Source: Nonomuraea roseoviolacea subsp. carminata (lineage in GTDB: Bacteria; Actinomycetota; Actinomycetes; Streptosporangiales; Streptosporangiaceae). From it: a DNA stretch of 64,000 nucleotides. How positions within the stretch are numbered: the stretch's first letter is position 1; every line of letters starts with the position of its first letter. Below the pieces are notes generated by a model, which was not told the DNA's origin, ran no database searches, and was given only the letters and a program-made list of their open reading frames with translations. This document shows, piece after piece, positions 1,452 through 44,103 of the stretch. A program made the position numbers and the translations under genes. The stretch covers positions 9,151,001 to 9,215,000 of the forward strand of contig NZ_JAMZEC010000001.1 of the NCBI RefSeq assembly GCF_024172185.1. Direction: 5' to 3'.

Positions 1452-2684
1452 TCAGCGGGTGGAGAAGGCGACGGCTGTCGTGGAGGCGATCAGGGTCGTC
1501 ACCACCACCATGACGAGCACCGACCCCAGCGGGCTGTGGCGCCTGTGGGCCGGGGCGGCGAGCTTGCGGGGCGGATGGGCCGCCACGCGGGCGGGCGTGG
1601 GCTCCGGTGTCGGCTCCGCCTTCGGCGAGGTGGTCGCGGACGGCTCCGGCGCGGCGGCGCGGACGGTGTGCCGTGCCGGTGTGCGGACCGGCGTCGAACT
1701 GGGCACCGGGGCGGGACTCCGCGTGGGCGTCGGACGTCGCGTCGGCGTCACCCGGGGGGTGGGGGCGCGGGTCGGGGTCGATGAGGGTGTGGCGGTGGGC
1801 GACGGGGTGACCGTCGGGGCGGGTGCGGCACGGCTGCGGCCGCAGGAGCCGATCTCGACGCTCACCACGGGCGGCACGTCCACGCAGACCGGCCCGGGAG
1901 GCGGTCCGCAGGAGCCGATGTGCACCAGGGCCACCGGCAGGTCGGCGCACACGGCCAGGCCGCCGCCTCTCCGGGCGCCTCTCCGGTCGTCGTCCCGGTC
2001 GTCGTCCTGAGGGGCGGCGCCCACGCGGACCCCGGCGATGTCGAGGAGCGGCTCCCCGCCGCTGCGCCCACGCCGGGCGCCGGCCTCGTCACCGTCGTCG
2101 CCGGGGTCCCGCTCGCGGTGCGCGCCCCCGACCGAGGTGCGGACGTCGACCAAGGCCCTCGACCCGGCCGTGTCGCCGCTGCCCCGTCTGTCGCCCGTCA
2201 CCCCCGCACCGTCCCGGCCGTCCCCGTCCCGGCCGTCCCCGCCCCGGCCGTCCCGGCCGTCGCCGTCCAAGCCGTCGCCGTTCGCCGGCACGCTCACCTC
2301 GCCGAGGCCGCGCCGACGGCCGTCGTCGTCGCGCATCGCGGCACGGGTGAACAGCGGCGCCGCCAGCGGGCCCACGGCGGCAGCCGCCGCGAACGAGCCC
2401 TTCGGCGGCTCGATGCCGCCCGTCGGAGCGCCTCCCCCGACCGTCATGGCACTCGCCGGAACGACACCGACCCGAGCGCCCCCGAGCGGGCCGCCCGCGC
2501 GACCGGCTGGGACGGCGCCGCCCGCGACGATGCGCGTGCCCGCGGACCCGGCCGTGCCGGAGGCCGCGGGCGCGGACCCGGCGGTCTCCGCGGCGAAGGG
2601 GGCGGCCGCGGCCGGGACGCCCACGTACAAGGCCAGCAGCGTGCCGGCCAGGAAGAGCGGCGTGCGCCGGGCGCCCACGGTCAC
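1452..2684 (-). CDS. Secreted, low-complexity Asp/Arg/Pro-rich protein with C-terminal anchor
   Basis: 410 residues from a GTG at 2684 that overlaps the upstream stop (GTGA). An N-terminal signal-like helix (LFLAGTLLALYVGVPAAAA) is followed by Gly/Ala and Asp/Gly/Arg repeats (GDGRDGRGGDGRDGDGRDG), two copies of a short IGSCG motif (VHIGSCG, VEIGSCG), a long Pro/Thr/Ser region typical of a wall-spanning stalk, and a C-terminal membrane helix (LVMVVVTTLIASTTAVAF) ending STR. This organisation fits a surface protein held in the membrane with a stalk through the wall. No enzymatic domain is recognised. It is translationally coupled to the DUF4239-like gene, so the two probably act together. Confidence 0.6.
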   Translation of the reverse strand: MTVGARRTPLFLAGTLLALYVGVPAAAAPFAAETAGSAPAASGTAGSAGTRIVAGGAVPAGRAGGPLGGARVGVVPASAMTVGGGAPTGGIEPPKGSFAAAAAVGPLAAPLFTRAAMRDDDGRRRGLGEVSVPANGDGLDGDGRDGRGGDGRDGDGRDGAGVTGDRRGSGDTAGSRALVDVRTSVGGAHRERDPGDDGDEAGARRGRSGGEPLLDIAGVRVGAAPQDDDRDDDRRGARRGGGLAVCADLPVALVHIGSCGPPPGPVCVDVPPVVSVEIGSCGRSRAAPAPTVTPSPTATPSSTPTRAPTPRVTPTRRPTPTRSPAPVPSSTPVRTPARHTVRAAAPEPSATTSPKAEPTPEPTPARVAAHPPRKLAAPAHRRHSPLGSVLVMVVVTTLIASTTAVAFSTR

Positions 2685-3448
2685 ACGCCTCCGCCGATGC
2701 GGGCGAACTCCTGCAGCGCCGCCTTGAACGCGTCCGGCCCCACCGCCAGCGGTCCGGCGAACACGTGCGAGATGTCCCACGTCAGGTACGTGCCGAAGCC
2801 CAGCAGGGCGGCCATCGCCACGAGCGGCGCGAGCGCCATGCCGCGCGGCCGGGCCCCGGCCAGGAACGGGAAGACGATGACCACGATCCCGGTCAGGATC
2901 GTCAGGAGGAGCAGGCCGGGCGGCGGCGTGGAGGCGGCGTCGGCGGCGCGCTGGGAGCGGGCGGCCGACACGGCGGCCACGTGGTCGAGGACGGCGTCCT
3001 TGGCGTCCTTGGCGGCGTCGTCGTCCGTCGCGATGGCGGCGACCCGGGCGCGCAGGGCGTCGAGCCGCTCGGTGCCGACCGGGTGCATGCGGCCCTGCTC
3101 CATGGCGGGCCACTCGTCGCCGACCACGAACGTGACGTAGTCGCGCAGCCCGGCGCGGACGAGGCCGGGAGCGGTGCCGGGCAGGGCGGCGGCGGCCCAG
3201 TAGGCGTCGACGGCGGCCTGGCTCTCGGCCTGGGCGTTCTGCCGGGCGGCGTCGGCGGTGGTCCACGGCACGATGACGGCGATCGCGAAGACCAGCAGGA
3301 ACAGCGCCGACAGCATCGCGCCGGCGTGGCCCGCCGAAGGACCGTCGGGCTGGCGGTCGTCCTCGCCGCGGCCCGTCATCCTGTACACGAGCGCGGTGAG
3401 CGCCACCACACCCACCGCCGCCGCGATCGCGAGCGCGTACGCCACCAT
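2681..3448 (-). CDS. DUF4239/bestrophin-like membrane protein
   Basis: 255 residues from an ATG at 3448 with AGGAGA 5 bases upstream. Four hydrophobic helices are visible: an N-terminal one (AYALAIAAAVGVVALTALVY), one near residues 45-65 (AMLSALFLLVFAIAVIVPW) and a C-terminal pair (LLLLTILTGIVVIVFPFL; ALAPLVAMAALLGFGTYL), with a soluble alpha-helical middle. This matches the actinobacterial DUF4239 or bestrophin-like layout; channel function is unproven. It is the first gene of a two-gene operon, and its 5' region runs into the G-depleted island. Confidence 0.62.
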   Translation of the reverse strand: MVAYALAIAAAVGVVALTALVYRMTGRGEDDRQPDGPSAGHAGAMLSALFLLVFAIAVIVPWTTADAARQNAQAESQAAVDAYWAAAALPGTAPGLVRAGLRDYVTFVVGDEWPAMEQGRMHPVGTERLDALRARVAAIATDDDAAKDAKDAVLDHVAAVSAARSQRAADAASTPPPGLLLLTILTGIVVIVFPFLAGARPRGMALAPLVAMAALLGFGTYLTWDISHVFAGPLAVGPDAFKAALQEFARIGGGV

Positions 3449-3559
3449 AACGATCTCCTGTCGCCTGCCGGATACGGAACGTCACTTGACTATCACAATC
3501 CGCGTTCAAAGATGAAGCCGTGATAACCGTATCCTTCTACAGATCGTTGTCGCTAGAGC

Positions 3560-3965
3560 GATGAGAATAGCAGGTATCATGCGCGCGTGGGGATAAATAC
3601 TTCATCACTTCCTATTTTTTCTTATCTCATCTGTACATATTTTCAATTCCCTAGGTAGCCACTTTAACCTAACCTTTTTCTGATGGTTAGACGTGTTTTG
3701 ATGTTGTTTGGGGGCTGTGTGTGGGCGCCCAGGATACTTCGAGGTGTCCTAACCCCGTCACTTGTTGGCGTCTTTCTATATACTTATCTCTATTTCTCCT
3801 TTTTCACCAACTACTCTCTCCCTCTTTACTTCTTTTTCTTTCCCCCCTTCCTTCCCTCCACCCCACTCTAAACGCTTCTCATCCGTAAACTTTTATTAAC
3901 TCTTTCTTCATCACTTCATCTATTACTATTATTACCATTTCTATTTTTACTACACCTTCAACGTG
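3560..3965. other. G-depleted, pyrimidine-rich low-GC island (non-coding)
   Basis: The 558 bp between 3448 and 4007 contain no convincing gene. From about 3560 to 3965 the base composition changes abruptly to A/T-rich, and the plus strand is dominated by T and C: I counted 22 purines and only 2 G in positions 3781-3900. Flanks on both sides return to the usual high G+C at once. A short higher-GC patch lies near 3690-3770. The island is 5' of the DUF4239 operon and 3' of the Lrp gene. A regulatory or structural role, recently acquired DNA, or an assembly artefact are all possible. Confidence 0.75.
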
Positions 3966-4006
3966 AGCGTGTGCACCGAGGTGCCGTCCGCCATCTGATC
4001 TGCGGG

Positions 4007-4648
4007 TCAGTCGTCCTTGCGGAGGGCCGCCCGGCCCTCCGCCGCGCCGACGAAGCGCATCTTGCCCAGGGGCACGTCCCCCTGCGCCTCCTGCGGCGTC
4101 CGGCGGGCGGGCCGGTTGCTCCTGGCGTCGCGGTCGCTCGGCAGCACGTACGGCCGCCTGAGCACCTCGTCCAGGATGAACACCGTCTCGGTGGCCTTGA
4201 CGGCCGGGATGTTGGCCAGCCGGTCCGTCACCATGGTGTGGACCTCGGCCACGTCGGCCACCCGCACCTGGATCATGGCGTCGTGCTGCCCGGTGGTGAT
4301 CGCGCAGTACTCGACCTCCGGCATGCGGGCCAGCTCGGCCCGGAACTGCCGCCACATCTGCTGCCGCACGGTGACGAAGATCAGGGCGGTGATGCCCAGG
4401 CCGGTGCGGACGTGGTCGATCTCGGCGGTGAACCGTTTGATGACGCCGTCCGCGCGCAGCGCCTCGAAGCGGGTGTAGGCGTTGGCGCGGGAGATGCCCA
4501 CCCGCTCGGCCAGCGCCGACACGGAGATCCTGCCGTTCTCGCGCAGGACCTCGAGGATCTTCATATGGACGGAGTCCAGCTCGAGACCGATGCCGATCCG
4601 TCCAGGCGGGCCGCCAGGGCCGCCACCATTCCTGGAAATATCACTCAT
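4007..4648 (-). CDS. Lrp/AsnC-family transcriptional regulator
   Basis: 213 residues from the ATG at 4648, chosen over an upstream ATG at 4714 because AAGGGG sits about 6 bases before it. An N-terminal winged helix-turn-helix (LDSVHMKILEVLRENGRIS, then SALAERVGISRANAYTRFEA, residues 24-65) is followed by a RAM/ligand domain (about 85-160) with the family's final strand. A C-terminal tail of about 45 charged residues is extra. Lrp-type proteins act as dimers or octamers that sense amino acids. It is divergent from a peptide-type ABC operon, so control of peptide or amino-acid uptake is the natural inference. Confidence 0.88.
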   Translation of the reverse strand: MSDISRNGGGPGGPPGRIGIGLELDSVHMKILEVLRENGRISVSALAERVGISRANAYTRFEALRADGVIKRFTAEIDHVRTGLGITALIFVTVRQQMWRQFRAELARMPEVEYCAITTGQHDAMIQVRVADVAEVHTMVTDRLANIPAVKATETVFILDEVLRRPYVLPSDRDARSNRPARRTPQEAQGDVPLGKMRFVGAAEGRAALRKDD

Positions 4649-4691
4649 AGTTACCCCTTGACTATTTATATACGTCTCGGAGACCACACGG

Positions 4692-4723
4692 GTCCTGGAC
4701 GTTCTGCCGGACAATCCTGGACA
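4692..4723. promoter_or_regulatory. Candidate Lrp-type operator: two TCCTGGAC repeats
   Basis: TCCTGGAC occurs at 4693-4700 and again at 4715-4722, a 22-bp period, i.e. about two helical turns on the same DNA face. A related GTCC/GGAC element surrounds the ribosome site at 4738-4752. The repeats lie in the 107-bp divergent region between the Lrp gene and the transporter operon. Phased half-sites are typical of Lrp binding; the link is inferred. Confidence 0.4.
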
Positions 4724-11187: not shown

Positions 11188-11277
11188 CGGTGCCCCGCCG
11201 TGGGTGCCGCCACACCACGACCCTGATGTACGGTTCTATGCAACCATGCCGGATAAATCATTTTTAAGGTTGTTTGG

Positions 11278-11589
11278 GTGTTGTTTGAGAAGGGATGGGC
11301 GGCGTCCCCCCTGCGGTGGCTGATGGACACCCTGGGGCGCGCCCAGCTGGAACGGATGGCGGGCGAGCCCGGCCTCCTGGCGGCGGTGGACCAGCACGCG
11401 GCGGCGCTGCGCGACGCGATCGCGCTCGACCGCGAGACGCTCGGCGACTACCTGCTGGGCTTCGCCGACGAGCTGCGGCACCTCGGCTGGACCTTCCGCG
11501 GCGAGCCGGACGCCGTCTCCCTCCGGCTGACCGCCATCTGCTGGCTCACCCACGAGCTCGGGCTGCTGGCCGACGAGTCCCCCGCCTGA
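11278..11589 (+). CDS. Small conserved actinobacterial protein (possible DUF6401 family)
   Basis: 103 residues from a GTG at 11278; a TTG follows at once and AAGG lies 8 bases upstream, so the start is uncertain. The sequence is mostly alpha-helical (LGRAQLERMAGEPGLLAAVD; DRETLGDYLLGFADELRHLG) with no signal or membrane segment. The length and the RWLMDTLGRAQL opening recall the actinobacterial DUF6401 family, some of which lie near natural-product genes; I am not certain. The A/T-rich 70 bp upstream suggests its own promoter. Confidence 0.55.
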   Translation: MLFEKGWAASPLRWLMDTLGRAQLERMAGEPGLLAAVDQHAAALRDAIALDRETLGDYLLGFADELRHLGWTFRGEPDAVSLRLTAICWLTHELGLLADESPA

Positions 11590-25585: not shown

Positions 25586-25612
25586 TGCCCCAGCACGCTG
25601 AGCGCATTGCTT

Positions 25613-25633
25613 GTTTGTACAAACGATCGATAG
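25613..25633. promoter_or_regulatory. Palindrome and weak TetR half-site before the PTE-family gene
   Basis: A perfect GTTTGTACAAAC palindrome (25613-25624) overlaps a CGATCGATAG half-site (25624-25633) resembling the right half of the 18-bp palindromes at 27607, 30700 and 42440. It lies 10 bp before the start codon of a gene co-transcribed with the TetR gene, so autoregulation is possible. Confidence 0.4.
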
Positions 25634-25643
25634 AATAACCCGC

Positions 25644-26768
25644 ATGGCGGAGCTTACGGGGGCGGCGGCCGGCCGTGTGCGCACCGTGCTGGGGGACGTC
25701 TCCCCCGACGCGCTCGGGCACACGCAGCCGCACGAACACGTCCTGTGCGACATGTCGGCGATCATCCATCCGTCGGGCCTGCGGCCGGTGGCGGGGGACG
25801 ACGACGTCCCGCCCGGGGCGGCCGGCCGGGTCGCCCCGGAGTTCCCCGCCTCGGTGCGCGCCCGCATCAACGACCCGGTGCGCCCCGACACCTACGACTG
25901 GATCCGCCGCACCGTCCTCAACCTCGACAACCTGCGCCTGCTCTCCGAGGACGACGCCGCCGGGGAGCTCGGCCTCTACCGCGCCGCGGGTGGCGGCACG
26001 GTGGTCGACTCCTCCCCCGTCGGCCTGGGGCGCGATCCGCTGGGGCTGGCGCGGGTGTCGCGGGCGAGCGGCGTGCACATCGTGATGGGCAGCGGCTACT
26101 ACTGCCGCGACTACCATCCGCCCGGCCTCGCCCGGACACCGATGGAGGCCGTGCGCGACGAGATCGTGCGCGACGTGGAGGAGGGCGTGGGCGACACCGG
26201 CGTCCGCGCCGGGCTCATCGGCGAGATCGGCCTGAGCTGGCCGGTCCACCCGGTCGAGGAGAAGGTGCTGCGCGCGGCCTGCCTCGCGCAGGCCGCCACC
26301 GGGGCGCCGCTGCAGATCCACCCCGGCCGCCATCCCGACGCGCCGCTCCAGGCGATGCGCGTGGTCGCCGAGGCGGGCGGCGTCCCCGAGCGGGTCGTCA
26401 TGTCCCACCTGGACCGCACGCTGTGGCGGGCCGAGGACCTGCTGGCACTGGCGGGTACGGGGTGCTATCTGGAGCTCGACCTGTTCGGCCAGGAGTCCAG
26501 CTACTACGCCTTCAACCCCGACGCGCGCCGCCCCAACGACCGCACCCGCGTCGAATGGCTGCAGGCGCTGGCCGAGGCCGGCCACCTGGACCGGCTGCTC
26601 GTCTCCCAGGACATCTGCCAGAAGGTCTACCTGCGCCGCTACGGCGGCCCCGGGTACACGCACGTCCTCGACAGCGTCGTCCCGCTCATGCGGCGCATGG
26701 GGATGTCCGACAAGGAGATCACGACGCTGACGGTCGCGAACCCCGCCGCCGTCCTGACTGTGGGATAG
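25644..26768 (+). CDS. Phosphotriesterase-family amidohydrolase
   Basis: 374 residues from an ATG at 25644. All ligands of the binuclear TIM-barrel site are present: HxH in QPHEHVLCD, a bridging Glu in LIGEIGLSW (Glu replaces the carboxylated Lys of classic phosphotriesterase, as in many lactonase-like homologues), His in QIHPGRH and MSHLDRT, and Asp in VSQDICQK. The family hydrolyses lactones, phosphotriesters or N-acyl groups. It is followed 8 bp later by a TetR regulator and opens the catabolic island, so a step on the island's substrate is likely. Confidence 0.85.
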   Translation: MAELTGAAAGRVRTVLGDVSPDALGHTQPHEHVLCDMSAIIHPSGLRPVAGDDDVPPGAAGRVAPEFPASVRARINDPVRPDTYDWIRRTVLNLDNLRLLSEDDAAGELGLYRAAGGGTVVDSSPVGLGRDPLGLARVSRASGVHIVMGSGYYCRDYHPPGLARTPMEAVRDEIVRDVEEGVGDTGVRAGLIGEIGLSWPVHPVEEKVLRAACLAQAATGAPLQIHPGRHPDAPLQAMRVVAEAGGVPERVVMSHLDRTLWRAEDLLALAGTGCYLELDLFGQESSYYAFNPDARRPNDRTRVEWLQALAEAGHLDRLLVSQDICQKVYLRRYGGPGYTHVLDSVVPLMRRMGMSDKEITTLTVANPAAVLTVG

Positions 26769-26776
26769 TCGGCGCC

Positions 26777-27532
26777 ATGGCCACGACCAACCAGACGGGC
26801 GGCAGCCAGCGCACCAAGGGCGGCAGGATGAAGGCGACGTCCACCAGACGGGCGCAGTCGGCGCGCACGGAGCTGGGCCTGTTGCGGACCGCGTGCTGGC
26901 TCTTCTCCGAGCGCGGCTTCCACGGCACCGGCATCCGCGACATCTCCGAGGCCGCCGGGGTGGCCGTCTCGGCGATGTACTACTACGCCTCCTCCAAGGA
27001 CGAGCTGCTGGAGGCGGTCTCCCGCCGGGTCATGGACGCGCTGACCACCGCGAGCGCGCAGACGGTCGCCGACGTGGACGACCCGGCCGAGCGCCTGGCC
27101 GCTCTGATGGCCGTCCACGTCGCCTTCCACGCCCGCAACCCGCGCGCCGCCAAGGTGGCCGACCACGAGTTCCAGGCGCTGACCGGCGCGGCCCGGCGCG
27201 ACATCCAGCGGATGCGCGACGCCTATGAGGAGGTCTGGGCGGACACGCTCCGTGCGGGGGTCGAGGCGGGGGTCTTCAAGGACCGCGGCAGCGTGGCGCG
27301 GCTGGCCATGCTGCAGATGGCGACGGGCGTCGCGCAGTGGTTCCGGCCCACGGGCGAGCTGGGCATCGCCGAGCTCTGCGAGCGGTTCGCCGACATGGGG
27401 CTCGCGCTGATGGGCGCCAACCGCGACGGGCGTCCGCTGGAGGCGCGCGACCTGCGCGTGCCGGAGCCGGACACACTGCTGGAGCGCGTCGAGCTGGCCA
27501 TCGAGCCGCGCCGCAAGCCCTCCGGTCTCTGA
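26777..27532 (+). CDS. TetR-family transcriptional regulator
   Basis: 251 residues from an ATG at 26777. A basic N-terminal tail precedes the TetR helix-turn-helix (residues about 30-85: CWLFSERGFHGTGIRDISEAAGVAVSAMYYYASSK in part FHGTGIRDISEAAG and SAMYYYASSKDELL). The C-terminal ligand domain is helical (MQMATGVAQWF region) and resembles TetR_C regulators of acyl-CoA or aromatic metabolism. It is co-transcribed with the phosphotriesterase-family gene. I propose that it binds the 18-bp palindromes upstream of the neighbouring catabolic genes. Confidence 0.88.
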   Translation: MATTNQTGGSQRTKGGRMKATSTRRAQSARTELGLLRTACWLFSERGFHGTGIRDISEAAGVAVSAMYYYASSKDELLEAVSRRVMDALTTASAQTVADVDDPAERLAALMAVHVAFHARNPRAAKVADHEFQALTGAARRDIQRMRDAYEEVWADTLRAGVEAGVFKDRGSVARLAMLQMATGVAQWFRPTGELGIAELCERFADMGLALMGANRDGRPLEARDLRVPEPDTLLERVELAIEPRRKPSGL

Positions 27533-27545
27533 CCCGCCGGGCCCC

Positions 27546-27582
27546 GGCGCCGTCCCTTCCGGCTGATCAGGAGGACGGCGCC
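27546..27582 (+). terminator. Hairpin after the TetR gene
   Basis: A 10-bp stem (GGCGCCGTCC with GGACGGCGCC) around a 17-base loop lies 14 bp after the stop at 27532 and just before the next promoter. Confidence 0.6.
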
Positions 27583-27588
27583 AGGGTC

Positions 27589-27624
27589 TTGACAGTGCGC
27601 TGAATTTGAGCGATCGTTCGATCA
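27589..27624 (+). promoter_or_regulatory. Promoter with proposed TetR operator for the kinase/PLP gene
   Basis: A TTGACA -35 (27589-27594) is followed 17 bp later by GATCGT as a possible -10 (27612-27617). The imperfect palindrome TGAGCGATCGTTCGATCA (27607-27624, 14 of 18 positions symmetric) covers that -10. The same layout, with the operator starting 18 bp after the start of TTGAC, occurs at 30682-30717. Confidence 0.6.
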
Positions 27625-27673
27625 GATTTGCATTGTGTCCGGCGGCGACGCCGGACGGTGAGCGGAGATCCAC

Positions 27674-30655
27674 GTGACGCGTACGGACCTGTCCCCCGCC
27701 GAGGAGACGCCGCGAGACCCCGGTGAGCCGGCGCTCGCCTCGGGCGTGGCGCGGGAGCTGTTCGGGCTGGAGGGGCGGCTGGAGCCGCTGCCGGGCGAGC
27801 AGGACCGCAACTACCGGCTGACCACCCCGGACGGCGACCGCTACGTCCTGAAGATCCACGCACCGGGCGCCGACCCGGTGGAGCTCGACCTGCAGGACGC
27901 CGCGCTGCTGCACCTCGCCTCGGCGCCCGGCGCCCCCGCCGCGCCGCGCCCGGTGGCGGCCCGCGACGGGCGGCACACCGTGCCGGTGCCCTGGCCGGAC
28001 GGCACGCGGGCCGCCCGGGTGCTCACCTGGATGGACGGCCGCCCCTGGGCGCAGGTCCGGCCGACCGAGGAGCGGCTGCGCGACCTCGGGCGGCACGTCG
28101 CCGCCGTCGATCTCGCGCTGCGCGGCTTCACCCACCCCGGCATGCGCCGGGAGCTGCTGTGGAGCCTCACCAGCGCGCCCCGGGTGGCCGGGCTGGCGCC
28201 GCTGGTGGCCGGAGAGCTCCGGCCGCTGGTGGACGAGGTCTTCGACCGCTACCGCGCCCATGTCGCGCCGCGCCTGGCCGCGCTGCCGCACCAGGTGATC
28301 CACAACGACGCCAACGAGCTCAACATCCTCGTGGACGACAGGGGCGCGGTGACCGGGCTCATCGACTTCGGCGACGTGGCGTGGAATCCGCGCGTGTGCG
28401 GCCTGGCGATCGCCGCGGCGTACGCGGCGCAGGGGCACGCCGACCCGCTCGGAGCGGTCCTGCCGCTGCTGGCCGGGTACGACGAGGTGACGCCGCCGCG
28501 CCCGGAGGAGCTGGAGGTGCTGTTCGACCTGATGCGCACGCGGCTGGCGATCAGCCTGTGCCTGTCGGCCCACCACCACGCCCAGGACCCGGGCAACGCG
28601 TACCTGCTGGTCAGCCGGCACGGGATGGCGCAGGCGCTGCGGCGCCTGGCGGGCACGGACCCGGGCCTCGCGCACTTCCGGCTGCGCGACGCCGTCGGGT
28701 ACGCGCCGGACCCCCGGGCCCGTGCCGTGCGCCGTCATCTCGACGCGGACGAGGCACGGCCGCTGCCGCCGCTGGAGGAAGGGCTGGAGGGCGGCGTCGT
28801 GGGCGCGTACGGCGATCTCGTCGCCCCCGCTCCGTCGCCGGACGACATGGAGCCGGAGGGCGGCACAGAACGGGAGGGCGGCACGGAACGAGAGGGCGGC
28901 ACGGAGGCGGATGAGACCGGGCCGGCGGTGCGGCTCGGGGTCGAGGTGGCCGCCGTCGCCGGAGCCCCCGTGCGGTGCCCGCTCCCCTCGGTCGTCCACG
29001 CGGTGCGCGCCGAGGGCGAGGGGGTCGTGGTGCTGGAGCATCGCACCGGTGACGGGGAGCCGTTCTGGACGCTCTACCGGCGCCTCGCCCCGGCCTCCCT
29101 GACACGGCTGCGGCCCGGGACGCGGCTTCCGGCGGGCGCCCCCCTGGGCACCCTGGCCGTTCCCGCGCGGGGAGCGGCGACGCTGGGGGTGCAGCTCGTC
29201 ACGCATCTCGCCGGCCTCGGAGCCGCGTTCCCCTGGGCGGCGCCCGCCGGCGAGGCCGGCCTGTGGACCGGCGTCAGCCTCCACCCCGGCGCGCTGCTCC
29301 ACCCACGTCCCCGGGAACGGCCCGTCCCTCCCGACGGCGGTCCCGCGGCGCCCCGGCGGGCGGCGCGGGACCTCGCGGCGCGCCGCCGCGTCAATTTCAG
29401 CCGCGCGCTCGGCCTGTCCTACCGCGAGCCGCTGCACATCGTGCGCGGGGAGGGCGCCCACCTCTACGACGCCTCCGGCCGCCGCTGGCTGGACCTGGTC
29501 AACAACGTCTGCCACGTCGGGCACTGTCACCCGCGGGTGGTCGAGGCCGGTCACCGGCAGGCCGCGCTGCTCAACACGAACACCCGCTACCTGCACGAGT
29601 CGGTCGTCGCGTACGCGCACCGGCTGGTCGAGCTGCTGCCCGACCCGCTGCGCGTGTGCTTCTTCGTCAACTCCGGCTCCGAGGCCAACGACCTGGCCCT
29701 GCGCCTGGCCACCGCGCACACCGGCGCCGAGGACGTGCTGGTCCTGGACCACGCCTACCACGGCCATCTGAGCTCGCAGATCGCGCTCAGCCCGTACAAG
29801 TTCGACAGGCGGGGCGGGCGGGGCAAGCCGCGCGCCACGCACGTGTGCGAGCTGCCCGACCCCTACCGCGGGCGCCTGCGGGAGGGCCGCGACCGCGACC
29901 TGGGGCGCGGGTACGCGGCGTCGGTGGCGGAGCGGCTGGCCGAACTGGGCGCGGCGGGACGGCGGCCGGCGGCGTTCTTCGCCGAGTCGCTGCAGAGCTG
30001 CGGCGGTCAGATCGTCTACCCGGACGGCTACCTGCGCGAGGCGTTCGCGCTCGTGCGCGCGGCCGGCGGGGTGTGCGTGTCCGACGAGGTCCAGGTGGGC
30101 CTGGGGAGGGTGGGCCGGCACTTCTGGGGGTTCGAGACGCAGGGCGTCACGCCCGACATCGTCACGCTGGGCAAACCGATGGGCAACGGCCATCCGCTCG
30201 CGGCCGTGGTGACGACCCCGGAGATCGCGCGCTCGTTCGAGAACGGCATGGAGTACTTCAACACCTTCGGCGGCAACCCCGTCTCGGCCGAGGTGGGGCT
30301 CGCGGTGCTCGACGTCATCCGCGACGAGCGGCTCCAGGCGCGGGCGCGGCGGCTCGGCGAGCGGCTGCTGGGCGGCCTGCGCGCGCTCCAGGAGCGCCAC
30401 CCGCTGGTCGGGGACGTGCGCGGCGAGGGCCTGTTCCTCGGCGTGGAGCTCAGCCTGGACGACCGCCGGCCGGCCACGGCGCAGGCGGCGGCCGTGAAGG
30501 AGGCGGTGAAGGCGCGCGGCGTGCTCCTGTCCACCGATGGTCCGTGCGACAACGTTCTCAAGATCAAGCCGCCGCTCGCGCTGGGCGAGGCGGACTGCGA
30601 CCTGTTCCTGGACGTCCTCGGCGACGCCCTGGACGAGGTCGGGACGACCCTCTGA
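27674..30655 (+). CDS. APH-type kinase / M23-like / class III PLP enzyme fusion
   Basis: 993 residues from a GTG at 27674. Residues 20-330 are an APH-family kinase (ATP Lys in YVLKIH, catalytic HNDANELN with D212, metal D231 in LIDFGD), closest in pattern to hydroxylysine kinase. Residues about 415-500 resemble an M23 beta domain that lacks its zinc ligands (YRRL where YxHL is expected). Residues 570-990 are a class III aminotransferase fold ([21 protein letters not shown] Lys834 in GKPMGNG) of the AGXT2L group, which cleaves O-phospho amino alcohols. The fusion suggests phosphorylation of an amino alcohol, then release of phosphate and ammonia to give an aldehyde. Substrate (ethanolamine, hydroxylysine or other) is unknown. 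Confidence 0.85.
28855..28908 (+). repeat. 18-bp in-frame tandem repeat, 3 copies
   Basis: GAGGGCGGCACGGAACGA-type units encode EGGTERE repeats in the linker between kinase and M23-like domains (residues about 394-412). Copies differ at one or two bases. Confidence 0.88.
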
Positions 30656-30681
30656 GAAACATCCCTTCTGTCAGAAGTGCC

Positions 30682-30717
30682 TTGACGCGGGCACATATTT
30701 GAGCGATCGTTCGATTA
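30682..30717 (+). promoter_or_regulatory. Promoter with proposed TetR operator for transporter operon
   Basis: TTGACG (30682-30687) is followed by TGAGCGATCGTTCGATTA (30700-30717), identical over 16 bases to the site at 27607 and at the same distance from the -35. A small CTTCT/AGAAG hairpin (30665-30677) lies between it and the upstream stop. Confidence 0.6.
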
Positions 30718-30768
30718 CTTAACCGGCTGGGACGGCAGCGCCCCCGAGCACCATGGGCGGTTCAACAG

Positions 30769-32439
30769 ATGCAAGGCATGCGGAAGACGGTCCTCGCGGC
30801 CACGGCGGCGACCCTGGCGATGACCACGGCCGGCTGCTACCGGGACACCACCGGCGGCGCCCCCGCGAACACGGCGGACAGCGGCGCTCCGGGCGGCGCG
30901 GCGCGGCGCGAGCTGGTCACCACGACCCCGCCCGGCACCGGCCGGGCGGACCGGGTCACCTGGGCCCTGTACCGGGGCACCACCTCCATCGACCCCATCA
31001 CCGCGGGCGACTATCCCGAGATCACCGTGACGAGCCTCATGTGCGAGTCGCTGTTCCGCCAGGGCCCCGACGGCTCCCCCGGGCCGGGGCTGGCGACCTC
31101 GCTGGAGTACCCCGACCCGCGTACGGCCGTCCTCAAGCTGCGCGAGGGCGTGCGGTTCTGGGACGGCTCCCCCATGACCGCCGAGGACGTCGCGTTCAGC
31201 ATCGAGCGCAACCGCGACCCGAAGGGCGGCGGCTACTGGGTGCCCGTGCTGAGCCGCGTCACCTCCGTGAAGGCCACCGGCCCGCTGGAGGTCACGCTGA
31301 AGCTGAGCCGGCCCGACCACTGGCTGCGCGACGTCCTGTCGTACATGCCGGGCATGGTGGTGTCCAAGGCGTATGTCACCGCGAAGGGCAAGGACTACGG
31401 CACCGCGCGGGGCGGGGCCATGTGCACCGGCTCGTACAAGCTCGGCGAGTGGCGCACCGGCGACGTCCTGTCGGTCGTGCGCAACGACGCGTACTGGAAC
31501 CGCTCGGCCGTGCCCCTGACGGGCCGGATCGACTTCAAGGGCATCCCGGACGAGGCCACGCTGACGGCGGCGCTGCTGACCGGGGAGGTGGACGGCGCCT
31601 ACCTGGAGCTGCCGCTGTCCACGATGGACCAGGTCCGGGCGAGCGACGCGGTCAAGGTGTACCAGGGGCCGTCGTACCTGATCGACGCGCTGATCGTGGC
31701 CGACCTGCGCCGCGGCCCGCTGGCCGACGCGCGCGTGCGCCGGGCCCTGTCCCTCGCGATCGACCGCGAGGCGTACGTCGCCACCCTCTACAAGGGCACC
31801 GCCCAGCCGGCCCGCGCGCTCGGCACACCCGGCACCTGGGGCTACGAGCGCGGCACGTTCGAGGCCGCCTGGAGCGCCCTGCCCGACCCGAAGGCGGACC
31901 TGGAGACCGCGCGCCGCCTCGTCCAGGAGGCCGGCGCGAGCGGGAAGACCGTGACGTTCGGCATGAGCAACGAGCTGAACAAGCTCGTCACCGAGGCCAA
32001 CCTGTTCAAGACGGCCGCCGAGCGCATCGGGCTCAAGCCCCGGCTCAAGGCGGTCTCCGCCGACGCCTACGGCGGCTTCTTCCTGGACCCGAAGGCCCGC
32101 GCCGACGTGGACGGCTTCTTCACCACCAACTATCCCAACTGGGCCGACCCCGGTGCCCTCTACGCCTCCTTCGCCCTGCCCGGCGGCCCGCAGGACTACG
32201 GCGGCTACCGCAGCGCCGAGGCGGCGGACCTGCTCGAGCGCGCCCGCGGCGCGGCCGGGCCGAAGGAACGGGCCGAGCTGACCGTGCGGGCGCAGCGGAC
32301 CGTGACCGGCGACCTGCCGTGGATCCCGGTCGTCGCCCCCGACACCGTGCTCGTGCTCAACGCGCGGCTGAGCGGCGCGACGGTCTCGTCCCAGCACCTG
32401 TTCGCGCCGTGGGCGGACCGGCTCGGGGCGGTGGGCTGA
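30769..32439 (+). CDS. ABC transporter substrate-binding lipoprotein, family 5
   Basis: About 556 residues from an ATG at 30769; an ATG at 30778 is an alternative with a shorter signal. Lipobox TTAGC places the lipid Cys at 23. SBP_bac_5 motifs include LREGVRFWDGSPMTAEDVAF and YPNWADPGALYASF near residue 455. It heads the second complete Opp/Dpp-type operon and directly follows a proposed TetR operator, so its ligand is probably the substrate of the catabolic island. It is only distantly similar to the binding protein at 4756. Confidence 0.9.
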   Translation: MQGMRKTVLAATAATLAMTTAGCYRDTTGGAPANTADSGAPGGAARRELVTTTPPGTGRADRVTWALYRGTTSIDPITAGDYPEITVTSLMCESLFRQGPDGSPGPGLATSLEYPDPRTAVLKLREGVRFWDGSPMTAEDVAFSIERNRDPKGGGYWVPVLSRVTSVKATGPLEVTLKLSRPDHWLRDVLSYMPGMVVSKAYVTAKGKDYGTARGGAMCTGSYKLGEWRTGDVLSVVRNDAYWNRSAVPLTGRIDFKGIPDEATLTAALLTGEVDGAYLELPLSTMDQVRASDAVKVYQGPSYLIDALIVADLRRGPLADARVRRALSLAIDREAYVATLYKGTAQPARALGTPGTWGYERGTFEAAWSALPDPKADLETARRLVQEAGASGKTVTFGMSNELNKLVTEANLFKTAAERIGLKPRLKAVSADAYGGFFLDPKARADVDGFFTTNYPNWADPGALYASFALPGGPQDYGGYRSAEAADLLERARGAAGPKERAELTVRAQRTVTGDLPWIPVVAPDTVLVLNARLSGATVSSQHLFAPWADRLGAVG

Positions 32440-32442
32440 GGC

Positions 32443-33387
32443 ATGGCCTCCTACCTCGTCCGGCGGCTGGTCATGCTGGCCGCGACGCTGCTGGTGTCGA
32501 GCCTGGTGGTCTTCGCCGGCCTGTCGGCCGCCCCGGGCGACCCGCTGACGACGCTGTCCGGCGGCCGGTCCCTGCCGCCGCAGACCGTCGCGCTGCTCGT
32601 CGAGCGCTACCACCTGAACGAGCCGTTCCTCGTGCGCTACGCCTCCTGGCTGGGCGGCGCGGCGCGCGGCGACCTCGGCGTGTCGATCCAGCTCCGGCAG
32701 GACGTCTCCGCCCTCATCGCCGCCCGCGCCGGCACCACTCTCGGCCTGATCGGGTACGCGGCGCTGATCGTGGTGGTCGCGGGCGTGGCGGCCGGGCTGC
32801 TGGCGGCGCTGCGGCCCGGGACCGTGGACACGGTCGTGGTCGCGGCGACGGCCGTGGTGGTGGCCGTGCCGCCGTTCGTGGCCGCGATGGCGCTCATCGG
32901 GGTCTTCGCGGTCGGCCTGCGCTGGCTGCCCGCCCTCGGCGACGGCGCCGGGCTGTGGGACGGGGTCCGGCACCTCACGCTCCCGGCGCTCGCGCTGGCG
33001 GCGGCCGCCGCGGCGGCCGTCGCCCGCATCACCCGCACCTCGGTGCGCGAGGAGCTGGGCCGCGAGCACGTGCAGACGGCCGTCGCCCGCGGCATCCCGT
33101 ACGCGGCGGTCGTGCGCCGCCACGCGCTGCGCAACGCGGCCGTGCCCATCGGCACGCTCACCGGCATGACCGTCGCCTCCATGATCGCGCTGGCGGCCGT
33201 GGTCGAGCGCGCCTTCGGGCTGAGCGGCCTGGGCGCGACGCTGGTGAACGCCGCGCTGTCGAAGGACTTCGCGGTCGTCCAGGGCGTCTCGCTGGTGCTC
33301 GTCACCGCGTTCGTGCTCGTCAACACCCTGGTCGACGTGGGGGCGGCGCTGCTCGACCCCCGGATCACGCTGGGAGGCCGGTCATGA
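32443..33387 (+). CDS. ABC transporter permease, DppB/OppB type
   Basis: 314 residues from an ATG three bases after the previous stop. Six helices and the EAA loop (HVQTAVARGIPYAAVVRRHALRNAAVP, key residues A-G-(x)9-R-H-A-L-R-N) match DppB. The N-terminal segment carries APGDPLTTLSGG, the DppB loop motif. It overlaps the next permease by ATGA. Confidence 0.88.
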   Translation: MASYLVRRLVMLAATLLVSSLVVFAGLSAAPGDPLTTLSGGRSLPPQTVALLVERYHLNEPFLVRYASWLGGAARGDLGVSIQLRQDVSALIAARAGTTLGLIGYAALIVVVAGVAAGLLAALRPGTVDTVVVAATAVVVAVPPFVAAMALIGVFAVGLRWLPALGDGAGLWDGVRHLTLPALALAAAAAAAVARITRTSVREELGREHVQTAVARGIPYAAVVRRHALRNAAVPIGTLTGMTVASMIALAAVVERAFGLSGLGATLVNAALSKDFAVVQGVSLVLVTAFVLVNTLVDVGAALLDPRITLGGRS

Positions 33388-34304
33388 CCGGGATCACCGT
33401 GGCGCGGCGGGCGGGAGCGGGGACGATCCGTCGCGCCGGGCTCGGCCCGCTCGGGACCGCGGCCGCGGGCGTCGTCGTCGTGGCGGTGGTGCTGGCCGTG
33501 CTCGGCCCGGCGCTGTCGCCCGCCGACCCGAACGCCAGCGACTTCGCCAGCGCCTACGCCCCGCCCGCGCCCGGACACCCGCTCGGGTTCGACGGGCAGG
33601 GGCGCGACCTGCTGGCCCGCCTGCTGGAGGGGGCGCGGACCTCGCTGCTCGGGCCGCTGCTCGTCGTCGCGCTGAGCATGGCGGCCGGCACGGCCCTCGC
33701 GATCGCGGCGGCCTGGGCGGGCGGCTGGCTGGACGCGGCGGTGTCGGCGGCGCTGGAGGTGGTCTTCGCCTTCCCCGGCGTGCTGCTGGCGATGCTGGTC
33801 GCGGCGGTCTTCGGCCCCGGGCTCGGGGCGGCGGTGGTGGCACTGGCCGTGGCCTACGTCCCGTACATCGCCCGGTTGCTGCGCGGCGCGGCGCTGGCCG
33901 AGCGGGGCAAGCCATACGTGCGGGCGCTGGAGGTGCAGGGGGCGGGCGCGCTCGCGATCTGCCTGCGCCACCTCGTGCCCAACCTCCTGCCGCTGATCGC
34001 CGCCCAGGCCACCCTGTTCTTCGGGTACGCGATGGTGGACCTGGCGATCGTGTCCTTCTTCGGCCTCGGCGTGCAGCCGCCCGACGCGGACTGGGGCGTC
34101 ATGGTGGCGAGCGGGCGCTCCGGGGTCCTGCAGGGCTACCCGGCCGAGGCGTTGCTGGCCGGCGGCTGCGTGGTGGTGCTGGTGGTGGCGTTCAACGTGC
34201 TGGGCGAACGGCTGCCCGGCGCCGCGGGCGCGGGCGGGCGCCCGTGGCGGCGGACCGGGCTGCGGACCGGGCGGCGGACCGGGCGGCGGGGAGGCGCCGC
34301 GTGA
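33384..34304 (+). CDS. ABC transporter permease, DppC/OppC type
   Basis: 306 residues from an ATG in an ATGA overlap. The OppC N-domain with a G(F)DGQGRDLLARLLEGAR stretch, five helices and FNVLGERLPG near the end fit the family. The C-terminus is unusual: a basic RTGLRTGRRTGRRGG tail made by 12-bp repeats, ending at the GTG of the next gene. Confidence 0.88.
   Translation: MTGITVARRAGAGTIRRAGLGPLGTAAAGVVVVAVVLAVLGPALSPADPNASDFASAYAPPAPGHPLGFDGQGRDLLARLLEGARTSLLGPLLVVALSMAAGTALAIAAAWAGGWLDAAVSAALEVVFAFPGVLLAMLVAAVFGPGLGAAVVALAVAYVPYIARLLRGAALAERGKPYVRALEVQGAGALAICLRHLVPNLLPLIAAQATLFFGYAMVDLAIVSFFGLGVQPPDADWGVMVASGRSGVLQGYPAEALLAGGCVVVLVVAFNVLGERLPGAAGAGGRPWRRTGLRTGRRTGRRGGAA
34249..34291 (+). 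repeat. 12-bp in-frame repeat at the permease C-terminus
   Basis: About three copies of GCGGACCGGGC(G/T) encode RTG(L/R) repeats immediately before the stop at 34304. They extend the cytoplasmic tail with positive charge. Confidence 0.85.
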
Positions 34305-35317
34305 ACGCCTCCCTGCTGGACGTCGAGGGGCTCACCGTGTTCCTGCCCGTGGAGGGCGAGGAACGGCCGGTGCTCCGGGACGTGTCCCTGTCGATCGCCG
34401 CGGGCGAGGCGGTCGGCCTCGTGGGCGAGTCGGGCTCGGGCAAGTCCATGACGGCCCGCGCGATCGTCCGGCTGCTGCCGCCGGGTGCGCGGACCGAGGG
34501 CGTGATCCGCTACCGGGGCGAGGACGTCGGTTCGCTGCGCGGCGCGGCGCTGCGCGCGCTGCGGACCGACGTGGCCATGGTCTTCCAGGATCCGCGGGCC
34601 CATGTGAACCCCGTCCGGACCGTGGGCGACTTCCTGACCGAGGGACTGCGGACGCACCGGCGCCTGTCGCGGCGGGCGGCCGAGGAGCGCGCGGTCCGCG
34701 TGCTGGACGAGGTCGGGATCGCGGCGGGCGCGCGGCGGCTGCGCCAGTACCCGCACGAGCTGTCGGGCGGGCTGCTGCAACGCGTGATGATCGCCGCCGC
34801 GCTGCTGGCCGAGCCGCGGCTGCTGCTGGCCGACGAGCCGACGACCGCGCTCGACGTCACCACGCAGGCCGAGGTCATGGCGCTGCTCGACGAGCTGCGC
34901 CGCGAGCGGGAGCTGGCCCTGCTGTTCATCACCCACGACCTGGAGCTGGCCGCCGCCGTCTGCGACCGCACCGCGGTGATGTACGCGGGACGCGTCATGG
35001 AGGTACGCGCGTCGGCGCTGCTCCACGACGACCCGCTCCACCCGTACACGGCGGCGCTGGCCGCGGCCCGGCCGTCCCTGGCCCGGCGCGCCGACCGGCT
35101 GCCGGCCACGCCGGGCCGTCCGCTGTCGGCGTTCGAGGCGCCGCCCGGATGCGCGTTCGGCCCCCGCTGCGCGCACGCCCGCGACGCCTGCCACGAACGG
35201 CGGCCCGAGCTGCTGCCCCTCGCGGGCGGGCAGGCGGCCTGCGCCCGCGCCGAGGAGCTGCGCGGACTGCTCCGCGACCGGAACGGGAAGCCGGTGGTGT
35301 CCCATGACCACGCCTGA
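34301..35317 (+). CDS. ABC transporter ATPase, DppD/OppD type
   Basis: 338 residues from a GTG overlapping the permease stop. Walker A GESGSGKS, FQDPRAHVNPV, signature LSGGLLQR (G-L-L in place of the usual G-Q/M), Walker B LLLADEPTTALD and THDLELA are present. The C-terminal oligo_HPY region has CAFGPRCAHARDAC, complete for the family. It overlaps the next ATPase by 14 bp. Confidence 0.9.
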   Translation: MNASLLDVEGLTVFLPVEGEERPVLRDVSLSIAAGEAVGLVGESGSGKSMTARAIVRLLPPGARTEGVIRYRGEDVGSLRGAALRALRTDVAMVFQDPRAHVNPVRTVGDFLTEGLRTHRRLSRRAAEERAVRVLDEVGIAAGARRLRQYPHELSGGLLQRVMIAAALLAEPRLLLADEPTTALDVTTQAEVMALLDELRRERELALLFITHDLELAAAVCDRTAVMYAGRVMEVRASALLHDDPLHPYTAALAAARPSLARRADRLPATPGRPLSAFEAPPGCAFGPRCAHARDACHERRPELLPLAGGQAACARAEELRGLLRDRNGKPVVSHDHA

Positions 35318-36143
35318 TCCCCGGGGGCCCGTGCTGGAGGTCGAGGGGCTGCGCAAGACGTTCGGCGACGTCGTGGCCGTGGCCGGCGTGGACCTCACCC
35401 TCCACGCGGGCGGGGCGCTGGCCGTCGTCGGCGAGTCGGGCTCGGGCAAGACCACGGTCGCGCGGATGATCGTCGGCCTCGAACGGCCGGCGGCCGGGCG
35501 GATCACCGCCTGCGGGCGTGACCGCTCCCGGCCGGCCCGCTCGGCGCGGGAGCGGCGGCGGCGCGGCGGCGAGGTGCAGATCGTCTTCCAGGACCCCTAC
35601 TCCAGCCTGGACCCGCGGCAGAGCCCCGCGTCGGCCGTGGAGGAGGTGCTGCGCCTGCACACCTCCCTCGACGCCGCCGGACGGCGCGGACGGGTGGCGG
35701 AGCTGGCCGGGCTGGTCGGCCTCGACGAGCGCCAGATGGCGGCGGCGCCGTCGCGGCTGTCGGGCGGGCAGCGGCAGCGGGTGGCCATCGCCCGCGCGCT
35801 CGCGGCCGAGCCACGGGTGCTCATCCTCGACGAGTCCGTGGCCGCGCTCGACGTCTCCATCCAGGCGCAGGTCCTGAACGTGCTGGCGGACGTGCGCGAG
35901 CGCACCGGCGTGGCGTACCTGTTCATCAGCCACGACCTGGCCGTGGTCCGCCAGGTCACCGACGACGTGGTGGTGATGCGAGGCGGCGCGATCGTCGAGC
36001 GCGGCCCCACGGCGCGCGTGCTCGACGCGCCCGCGCACCCGTACACCCGCCTGCTGCGCGAAAGCGTTCCCCGTCCCGGCTGGCGGCCCGCCCGCCGGGC
36101 CCTCCGAACCGGCCAGGACGACGAGCTGAAGGAGTCACGATGA
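35304..36143 (+). CDS. ABC transporter ATPase, DppF/OppF type
   Basis: 279 residues from an ATG inside the 3' end of the previous gene. Walker A GESGSGKTT, FQDPYSSLDPR, LSGGQRQR, Walker B VLILDESVAALD (Glu then Ser, a common OppF variant) and SHDLAVVRQ. It stops shortly after the H-loop, without the oligo_HPY cysteines found in its partner. It overlaps the amidase gene by ATGA. Confidence 0.9.
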   Translation: MTTPDPRGPVLEVEGLRKTFGDVVAVAGVDLTLHAGGALAVVGESGSGKTTVARMIVGLERPAAGRITACGRDRSRPARSARERRRRGGEVQIVFQDPYSSLDPRQSPASAVEEVLRLHTSLDAAGRRGRVAELAGLVGLDERQMAAAPSRLSGGQRQRVAIARALAAEPRVLILDESVAALDVSIQAQVLNVLADVRERTGVAYLFISHDLAVVRQVTDDVVVMRGGAIVERGPTARVLDAPAHPYTRLLRESVPRPGWRPARRALRTGQDDELKESR

Positions 36144-37621
36144 CCGAGACGACCCCGCGACCCGCGCTGAGGGAGCCGGTCGGCACCGGCCCGGAGGGCT
36201 GGCCCACCGCCATGGAGCTGGCCGGGCTCATCGCCCGGCGCGAGGTGAGCGCCCGGGAGGTGCTGGACGGCTACCTGGAGCGGATCGACGCGATCGACCC
36301 CGCGCTCAACGCCTTCTGCCGCGTCGACCACGACGACGCCAGGAAGGCGGCCGGCGAGGCCGACGCCCGCACCGCCCGGGCCGCGGCGACCGGCGAGCCG
36401 CTCCCGCCGTTCCACGGCGTGCCCACCGCGATCAAGGACCTGCACCCGGTGCGCGGCCGGCCGCTGTGCAGCGCCTCCAACGCCGTCGGGAGCCAGGTGA
36501 TGGCCGACGACGCGCCCGCCGTGAAGGCGCTGCGCCAGGCGGGCTTCGTGTTCCTGGGCGCGACGACGTCGCCCGAGTTCGGCACCGTGTCGGTCACCGA
36601 GTCGGCCCGGCACGGCGTCACCCGCAGCCCGTGGGACCTCGGGCGCAGCCCGGGCGGGTCCAGCGGCGGCGCGGCGGCGGCCGTCGCGGCCGGGCTGCTG
36701 CCCGTGGCGCACGGCTCCGACGGGGCCGGCTCCATCCGCGAGCCGGCCAGCTTCTGCGGGCTCGTCGGCATGAAGCCGAGCCGCGGGCTCGTGCCGTCCG
36801 ACGCCCACTACATGGAGGGCTTCGCGACCGAAGGCGTGCTGTCGCGGACGGTGCTCGACACGGCGGCCATCCTGGACGAGCTCGCCGCGGCCCCGCGCAC
36901 CACCTGGTACGAGGTCCCCCGGCCGGAGGTGCCGCTGCGCGAGCGCGCCCTGCGCGACCCCCGGCCGCTGCGGATCGGGCTGGTCGTGCAGCCGGCCTTC
37001 CCCGCGGAGGTGGACCCGCGGGCCGTGGCGCTGGCGCGCCGGGCGGCCGACCTGCTGTCGGACCTGGGGCACGAGGTGGTCGACCACCGCGTCCCGGGGC
37101 TCGACCCGGAGTGGTTCACGCCGCGCTTCGACGTCCTGTACGCCACGGGCTCGGCCGACACCCCGGTCGTCGACGAGGAGGCCGTCGAGCCGCTCAACCG
37201 GACCCTGCGCGCGGCGGCGCGCCGCACCGACTCGCTCGCGTACGTCACGACGGTGCTGGAGCTGCAGTGGCGTTCGGCGGAGATGTACCGAGCGTGGGAC
37301 GGCGAGGACGGCGTGGACGTCGTGCTCACCCCCACCAACCCGGTGCTCGCGCCGGGCGAGGGGGCGCTGTGGGAGGGGCAGGACGCCGACCCGTGGCTGC
37401 CGCTGCGGCGCGCCGAGGAGACCGCCTCCCTCACCGTCCTGGGCAATCTGCTGGGCCTGCCCGCCATCTCCGTTCCGCTGGTCGAGCAGCCCGGCGGCCT
37501 CCCCCTGGGCGTGCAGCTCATCGGCGGCAGGTGGCAGGACGGCACGGTCCTGTCCCTGGCCGCCCAGCTCGAACGCGCCCACCCGTGGCGGCACCGCCGG
37601 CCCGCCGGCCTCCCGCTCTGA
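36140..37621 (+). CDS. Amidase, amidase-signature family
   Basis: 493 residues from an ATG in an ATGA overlap with the transporter. The Ser-cisSer-Lys triad is complete: K99 (AIKDLHP), S174 (GGSSGG) and S198 (GAGSIREPA). The spacings of 75 and 24 residues equal those of FAAH and GatA rather than malonamidase. It hydrolyses a carboxamide in the cytoplasm, probably the amide bond of the compound brought in by the transporter it is coupled to. No GatB/GatC partner is near, so it is not part of tRNA amidation. Confidence 0.9.
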   Translation: MTETTPRPALREPVGTGPEGWPTAMELAGLIARREVSAREVLDGYLERIDAIDPALNAFCRVDHDDARKAAGEADARTARAAATGEPLPPFHGVPTAIKDLHPVRGRPLCSASNAVGSQVMADDAPAVKALRQAGFVFLGATTSPEFGTVSVTESARHGVTRSPWDLGRSPGGSSGGAAAAVAAGLLPVAHGSDGAGSIREPASFCGLVGMKPSRGLVPSDAHYMEGFATEGVLSRTVLDTAAILDELAAAPRTTWYEVPRPEVPLRERALRDPRPLRIGLVVQPAFPAEVDPRAVALARRAADLLSDLGHEVVDHRVPGLDPEWFTPRFDVLYATGSADTPVVDEEAVEPLNRTLRAAARRTDSLAYVTTVLELQWRSAEMYRAWDGEDGVDVVLTPTNPVLAPGEGALWEGQDADPWLPLRRAEETASLTVLGNLLGLPAISVPLVEQPGGLPLGVQLIGGRWQDGTVLSLAAQLERAHPWRHRRPAGLPL

Positions 37622-37653
37622 ACCCCTCTCACCCTCACCTGGAGGAGACACCC

Positions 37654-40109: not shown

Positions 40110-40191
40110 GTCCGTCCTTTCCACCTCTGCCCGTCTCGTCCTCACGCCTCCGCCTTTCCAGGCGGGCTGCGACTGCACTGGAGATCCCCAC

Positions 40192-41625: not shown

Positions 41626-41700
41626 CCACCCGCGGCGGCGCCCGGGCCTGGCGCGGACCGGCCCTCCCGCGCGGGGGCGGGCCGGCCTTCCCCGCGCCGG

Positions 41701-41745
41701 GGTGGGCCGGTCCTCCGTGCGCCGGGTGGGCCGGTCCTCCGTGCG
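41701..41745. repeat. 21-bp direct repeat, period 24, beside the DJ-1 gene stop
   Basis: A 21-base element beginning GGTGGGCCGGTCCTCC is exact at 41701-41721 and 41725-41745. The sequence holding the DJ-1 gene stop (41750) is a diverged relative. The 124-bp convergent gap 41626-41749 otherwise holds only GC-rich inverted repeats that may act as a terminator. Confidence 0.8.
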
Positions 41746-41749
41746 GCGC

Positions 41750-42415: not shown

Positions 42416-42439
42416 GTCCGTTCGCCCCTTTCCTTGATT

Positions 42440-42457
42440 TTATCGACCGTTCGATTA
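42440..42457. promoter_or_regulatory. Proposed TetR operator between DJ-1 and GMC genes
   Basis: TTATCGACCGTTCGATTA is an imperfect palindrome sharing CGA-(N)-CG-T-TCGATTA with the sites at 27607 and 30700. A combined pattern TNANCGANCGTTCGATNA describes all three. It sits 24 bp before the DJ-1 start and 12 bp before the GMC start. Confidence 0.58.
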
Positions 42458-42468
42458 AACTCCGTTCC

Positions 42469-44022: not shown

Positions 44023-44056
44023 GCCCGGTGGGAGCACGCTCCTGACCGGGGACGCG

Positions 44057-44103
44057 GTCAGAGGCGGGGAGTCAGAGGCGGGTGTCCGAGAGTCAGAGGC
44101 GGG
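44057..44103 (-). repeat. Triplicated gene end of the 44093 amidohydrolase
   Basis: GTCAGAGGCGGG occurs at 44057, 44071 and 44092. The last holds the real stop codon (44093-44095) of the minus-strand gene; the other two lie downstream in the 70-bp convergent gap. Confidence 0.88.

What the first reader, a model, noticed from the sequence alone, without database searches (positions are those of the whole stretch)
3560..3965. G-depleted, pyrimidine-rich island in a high-GC genome
Seen: an abrupt, roughly 400-bp change in base composition; only 2 G and 22 purines among 120 bases at 3781-3900 on the plus strand. The complementary strand is purine-rich, a form that can make triplex or slipped DNA, and it would be transcribed as an unstructured leader of the DUF4239 operon. 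Inference: foreign insertion, a deliberately unstructured 5' leader, or a misassembled segment.
Basis: partly seen in the sequence, partly recalled or inferred. Interest (0 to 1): 0.6.

Follow-up and report, generated by a model that had tools for sequence, protein, structure and literature searches.

The report
Junk sequence patch replacing a gene
A 431-base patch of odd, G-poor sequence in a Nonomuraea (soil actinomycete) genome stands exactly where all examined relatives carry a small conserved gene, and a second patch in the same genome shows the same pattern, so it is most likely an assembly error rather than biology.

Summary
The composition anomaly is real in the sequence given. It spans 3530-3960 (431 bp), and 3781-3900 holds 2 G and 22 purines. 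It is not a leader, an insertion element or a repeat. In the two nearest species (N. rhodomycinica and N. montanisoli, flanks about 97% identical) the same gap holds 449 bp of ordinary high-GC DNA. That DNA carries a 120-aa gene found at all 30-odd Nonomuraea lrp loci examined. The window keeps only its last ~12 codons.

A second patch lies elsewhere in the genome (C1:5707423-5707924): 502 bp without a single G, replacing ~482 bp inside a conserved tyrosine-kinase-like gene. Both patches replace native DNA almost length for length (431 vs 449; ~500 vs ~482). No source was found in the collections searched, and neither patch shows a trace of the native sequence. The window patch has no open frames, terminal repeats, RNA structure or Rfam match. 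No other of 341 family genomes has a comparable run inside a contig.

The best explanation is a length-preserving artefact of sequencing or assembly: junk consensus or gap fill in place of real sequence. The rival that untemplated DNA was ligated into a break is not excluded, but has no positive support. Raw reads or one PCR would decide.

The parts
3530..3960 (.). Patch of non-native, G-poor sequence (431 bp) standing in for 449 bp of native DNA
   Evidence: Alignment to G034 and G029 breaks at 3529 and resumes at 3961; no match elsewhere
3771..3962 (.). Most G-depleted part: G-free runs 3771-3873 and 3886-3962
3678..3727 (.). G+T-rich stretch inside the patch, showing the composition is patchy rather than uniformly G-poor
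3961..3999 (+). Surviving 3' end of the replaced 120-aa gene (reads NVSVCTEVPSAI-stop; sisters HVSVCTEVPSAS-stop)
2681..3448 (-). DUF4239/Bestrophin-like membrane protein gene, intact, conserved in the genus
   Evidence: PF14023 E 1.6e-37; tblastn in sisters
3449..3529 (.). Intact native upstream region of the DUF4239 gene, conserved in sisters up to the patch
4007..4714 (-). Lrp/AsnC-family regulator gene, intact, convergent to the lost gene
   Evidence: PF01037, PF13412

Best explanation
The patch is an artefact of this genome assembly. Over about 430 bases the consensus is junk (base calls from one or a few corrupted reads, or low-quality gap filling) written in place of roughly 450 bp of true sequence, which very probably carries the usual 120-aa gene between lrp and the DUF4239 gene. 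A second patch (C1:5707423-5707924) arose the same way inside a conserved tyrosine-kinase-like gene. Shown: same-place, near-same-length replacement of conserved genes at two loci by unrelated, compositionally wild sequence. Inferred: that the cause is sequencing or assembly rather than the cell; which instrument or program produced it is unknown.
For: (1) Flanks ~97% identical to two sister species up to 3529 and from 3961; the sisters have 449 bp of ordinary coding DNA between. (2) The replaced gene is present in all 30-odd further Nonomuraea lrp loci examined and extends to Sphaerisporangium; its last ~12 codons remain in the window. (3) A second patch in the same genome: 502 bp with zero G, inside a kinase gene intact in all six relatives examined. 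(4) Length is nearly preserved in both (431 vs 449; ~500 vs 482), expected if a read passed over the locus but was miscalled, unexpected for independent deletion plus insertion. (5) No source found: 148 relatives, phages, plasmids, and exact scans of 84,980 species genomes and viral contigs with a 44-base word from the patch; native segments not elsewhere in the genome. (6) No biological features in the window patch: stops in all six frames, RNA fold z-scores from -1.2 to +1.7, no Rfam match at gathering score. (7) Sporadic, not a lineage trait: among 341 family genomes the other long G-free runs were repeats, homopolymers, coding PKS-like DNA or one contig end.
Against: No reads could be examined, so the artefact is inferred. 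Both junctions are clean, flanking genes are intact and the assembly is near-complete (one 9.75-Mb contig plus two tiny ones, completeness 99.99%), so general quality is high. A junk stretch with no G over 502 bases and a drift from A/C to C/T is itself an unusual error. A learned-substitution alignment found no residue of native sequence, so a simple miscalled copy is not demonstrated. Only two events are available for the length argument.
Confidence: 0.85

Rival explanations
1. Real filler DNA: two double-strand breaks with loss of ~450-480 bp were sealed with ~430-500 nt of untemplated DNA (made by an end-joining polymerase such as the LigD polymerase domain or by an Abi/DRT-type reverse transcriptase), which explains the biased, random-looking composition.
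For: Composition is biased and sequence random-looking with no source. Bacterial enzymes that make long random or biased DNA without a template exist: AbiK/Abi-P2 (PMC9508834) and DRT1, which favours A (PMC13275509). Actinomycetes commonly have Ku/LigD end joining (general knowledge, not tested here).
Against: The inserted length would have to equal the lost length within ~4% twice. Both events hit conserved genes. No RVT_1 match in this genome (Abi-type RTs could be missed by that model). No patch of this kind inside a contig in the other Nonomuraea genomes scanned.
Confidence: 0.07
2. Foreign insertion or substitution: a small mobile element or a fragment of unrelated low-GC DNA replaced the gene.
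For: GC of 41-46% against 72% for the genome; part of the patch is of mixed composition (3530-3770).
Against: No homologue in the collections searched, no terminal inverted repeats or coding frames, and a replacement rather than an insertion. The second patch contains no G at all over 502 bp, which an ordinary donor genome would hardly give.
Confidence: 0.05
3. A functional unstructured 5' leader or regulatory tract of the DUF4239 gene.
For: Both strands of 3810-3958 are essentially unstructured as RNA.
Against: Absent from both sister species and from every relative examined, which keep a gene there; the DUF4239 upstream region 3449-3529 is intact without it; lack of structure follows from base composition alone (z about 0).
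Confidence: 0.03

Closest known systems
Read 'glitches' and low-complexity 'junk' in long-read data, and junk consensus or gap fill in assemblies (PMC6966772 discusses glitches and junk reads)
   Same: A local break in sequence continuity with nonsense bases, low-complexity biased composition, flanks intact; glitches can cause assembly problems
   Different: The simulated glitches there are 0-100 bases; these patches are 431 and 502 bp, and survived into the final consensus. The sequencing platform of this genome is unknown
Purine junk near the end of contig C168 of another Nonomuraea draft (G041, L152:1318-1640)
   Same: Abrupt change from normal coding DNA to an A-rich then G-rich, two-letter, aperiodic stretch of ~300 bp
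   Different: Lies close to a contig end in a fragmented draft, not inside a near-complete chromosome
Template-independent DNA made by AbiK/Abi-P2 and DRT1 reverse transcriptases (PMC9508834, PMC13275509)
   Same: Long DNA of random or biased sequence
   Different: Known products are protein-bound single strands, not chromosomal patches; no RVT_1 gene found in this genome

Membership tests
Assembly/base-call artefact | Native sequence of the locus present in close relatives with flanks continuous on both sides | tested here: met
Assembly/base-call artefact | Length of the locus approximately preserved | tested here: met
   431 vs 449 bp; 500-502 vs 482-486 bp
Assembly/base-call artefact | Residual similarity to the native sequence (expected only of a miscalled copy, not of junk fill; so it is not defining for the class) | tested here: not met
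   Alignment with learned substitutions is within the control range: 12.5 and 9.4 against control maxima 21.7 and 14.0
Assembly/base-call artefact | Abnormal read coverage, clipping or low consensus quality at the junctions | not testable with these tools
   No reads held
Mobile element insertion | Terminal repeats, target-site duplication or coding capacity | tested here: not met
   Stops in all frames; longest inverted repeat is an internal 10-bp near-palindrome; native DNA is lost rather than duplicated
Mobile element insertion | Other copies or relatives | tested here: not met
   Single copy in its genome, no relatives
Structured leader RNA / riboswitch | Rfam match or fold more stable than shuffles | tested here: not met
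   No match at gathering score; z-scores from -1.2 to +1.7
Untemplated filler DNA | Reverse transcriptase or equivalent untemplated polymerase in the genome | tested here: inconclusive
   No RVT_1; Abi-type RTs and LigD were not searched for

The most novel reading that the evidence does not exclude
The patches are real chromosomal DNA synthesised without a template and with almost no G, ligated into breaks in place of native genes: a bacterial source of genuinely new, non-inherited sequence.
Probability: 0.05. Interest if true: 0.85.

Novelty: not a real feature. Interest (0 to 1): 0.12.

Why it matters
If it is an artefact, the public assembly wrongly shows two genes as lost or broken (a conserved 120-aa protein next to lrp, and an exopolysaccharide-type tyrosine-kinase-like gene), and annotation or gene-loss studies would be misled; the G-free-run scan used here is a cheap way to flag such patches. 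If the patches were real they would be chromosomal DNA of untemplated origin, which would be very surprising; one PCR decides.

Tried and rejected
Hypermutation or recoding of the native sequence (G to A, G to T, purine/pyrimidine, complement, reverse): no consistent signal in about 80 alignment tests or in learned-substitution alignments against 150 control segments per test. Transposition or gene movement: native segments are not elsewhere in the genome. RNA family or leader: Rfam and folding negative. Lineage-wide G-free elements: family scans found repeats, homopolymers, G-poor coding DNA and one contig-end junk. The 37-nt G-free run at window 11263-11300 (minus strand) lies within a block aligned to the sisters at 92%, so it is native. 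One search was wasted on an all-N query. A literature search for the genome's own announcement led nowhere.

Full report
OBSERVATION. GC drops from 70-80% to 41-46%, and the three longest G-free runs of the 64-kb window all lie here (103, 77 and 40 nt). In 878 kb sampled from the same genome, a third-order Markov score ranks this patch as the second most foreign-looking place. The composition is patchy: 3530-3630 is mixed, 3678-3727 is G+T-rich, and only 3771-3960 is nearly G-free.

WHAT SHOULD BE THERE. The window is C1:9151001-9215000 of a 9.75-Mb genome. Named relatives place it in Nonomuraea, with N. rhodomycinica (G034) and N. montanisoli (G029) nearest (contig lengths and positions agree). 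Both have continuous synteny across the locus: the alignment stops at window 3529 and resumes at 3961, and in place of the window's 431 bp both carry 449 bp of ordinary high-GC DNA. That DNA encodes a 120-aa protein (L022:2919-3278) with no Pfam family and no meaningful NCBIfam match. It lies beside lrp at every one of the 30-odd genus loci that covered the place and is also found in Sphaerisporangium. In the window only its last ~12 codons survive, still followed by the stop (NVSVCTEVPSAI). The missing part is not elsewhere in the genome. The DUF4239 (Bestrophin-like, PF14023) and lrp genes on either side are intact.

A SECOND PATCH. A scan of the whole genome for runs of 37 or more bases without G (both strands) returned this patch, a CA-rich simple repeat, a 37-nt run inside sister-aligned DNA, and one new place, C1:5707422. 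There, 502 consecutive bases contain no G (L092:6424-6925; about 10^-97 under the genome's G frequency). The stretch runs from A+C-rich to C+T-rich. It lies inside a Wzz/BY-kinase-like gene (named from its sequence features, not from a family search): residues equivalent to 3-250 and 411-481 are present, and about 160 residues including the GEGKSS motif are replaced. In N. rhodomycinica, N. montanisoli and a third relative (G022) the corresponding native segment is 482 bp, against 500 in this genome. The native segment is not elsewhere in the genome.

INTERPRETATION. Two conserved genes in one genome are interrupted by unrelated sequence with extreme composition, and in both cases native DNA is replaced almost length for length (431 for 449; 500 for 482). 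Independent deletion and insertion would rarely match lengths so closely twice (inference; roughly 1 in several hundred if lengths vary on a scale of ~450 bp). A read that traversed the locus but was called as noise, or a gap of known size filled with junk, gives this naturally. The window patch resembles nothing in 148 relatives, phages, plasmids, or the exact-word scans of species genomes and viral contigs (records of this same genome may be left out of some of these). It has no open frames, no terminal repeats and no RNA signal. The second patch was not searched against those collections; it was found in no other family genome by the G-free scan. Among 341 family genomes, long G-free runs were otherwise homopolymers, simple repeats, genuine G-poor coding DNA in PKS-like genes (G239, G393), or aperiodic A-to-G junk near the end of a draft contig (G041:C168) that looks like assembly debris. 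Junk and glitches in reads are recognised sources of assembly problems (PMC6966772).

LIMITS. No reads were available and the platform is unknown. An attempt to detect a degraded copy of the native sequence in the patches failed, so 'miscalled native read' is not demonstrated; junk gap fill fits equally well. The assembly's two tiny extra contigs (1245 and 545 bp) read as N and may or may not hold the missing sequence.

RIVALS. Untemplated DNA joined into breaks is the most interesting rival. Enzymes with such activity exist (AbiK/Abi-P2, PMC9508834; DRT1, PMC13275509), but no RVT_1 protein was found in this genome, the length coincidence counts against it, and no other Nonomuraea scanned shows such a patch inside a contig. 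A foreign element or a functional leader has no support. Overall: most likely not a real feature of the organism, confidence 0.85.

Noticed in passing
G000:C1:5707423-5707924 (L092:6424-6925): 502-bp stretch with no G at all, drifting from A/C-rich to C/T-rich, replacing the central kinase part of a conserved Wzz/BY-kinase-like gene; the second patch of the same kind.
   Followed up: yes
window 25586-44091: About 18.5 kb absent at this place from N. rhodomycinica and N. montanisoli; carries an oligopeptide-type ABC transporter, amidase, AMP-binding enzyme, aldehyde dehydrogenase and GMC oxidoreductase genes: an ordinary catabolic cluster gained here or lost in the sisters.
   Followed up: partly
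L152:1318-1640 (G041 C168): A-rich then G-rich two-letter aperiodic stretch close to the end of a draft contig of another Nonomuraea; looks like assembly debris.
   Followed up: partly
L156:1502-1773 and L155:1248-1398: Naturally G-poor PKS-like coding DNA (272-nt and 151-nt G-free runs) in two other family members; G239 has three matches with the same start sequence.
   Followed up: no
G000 contigs C2 and C3: Two contigs of 1245 and 545 bp that read entirely as N here; could be unplaced true sequence.
   Followed up: no
window 11260-11299: 40-nt C-free G/T/A-rich stretch upstream of an ORF, within DNA that aligns to the sister species.
   Followed up: partly
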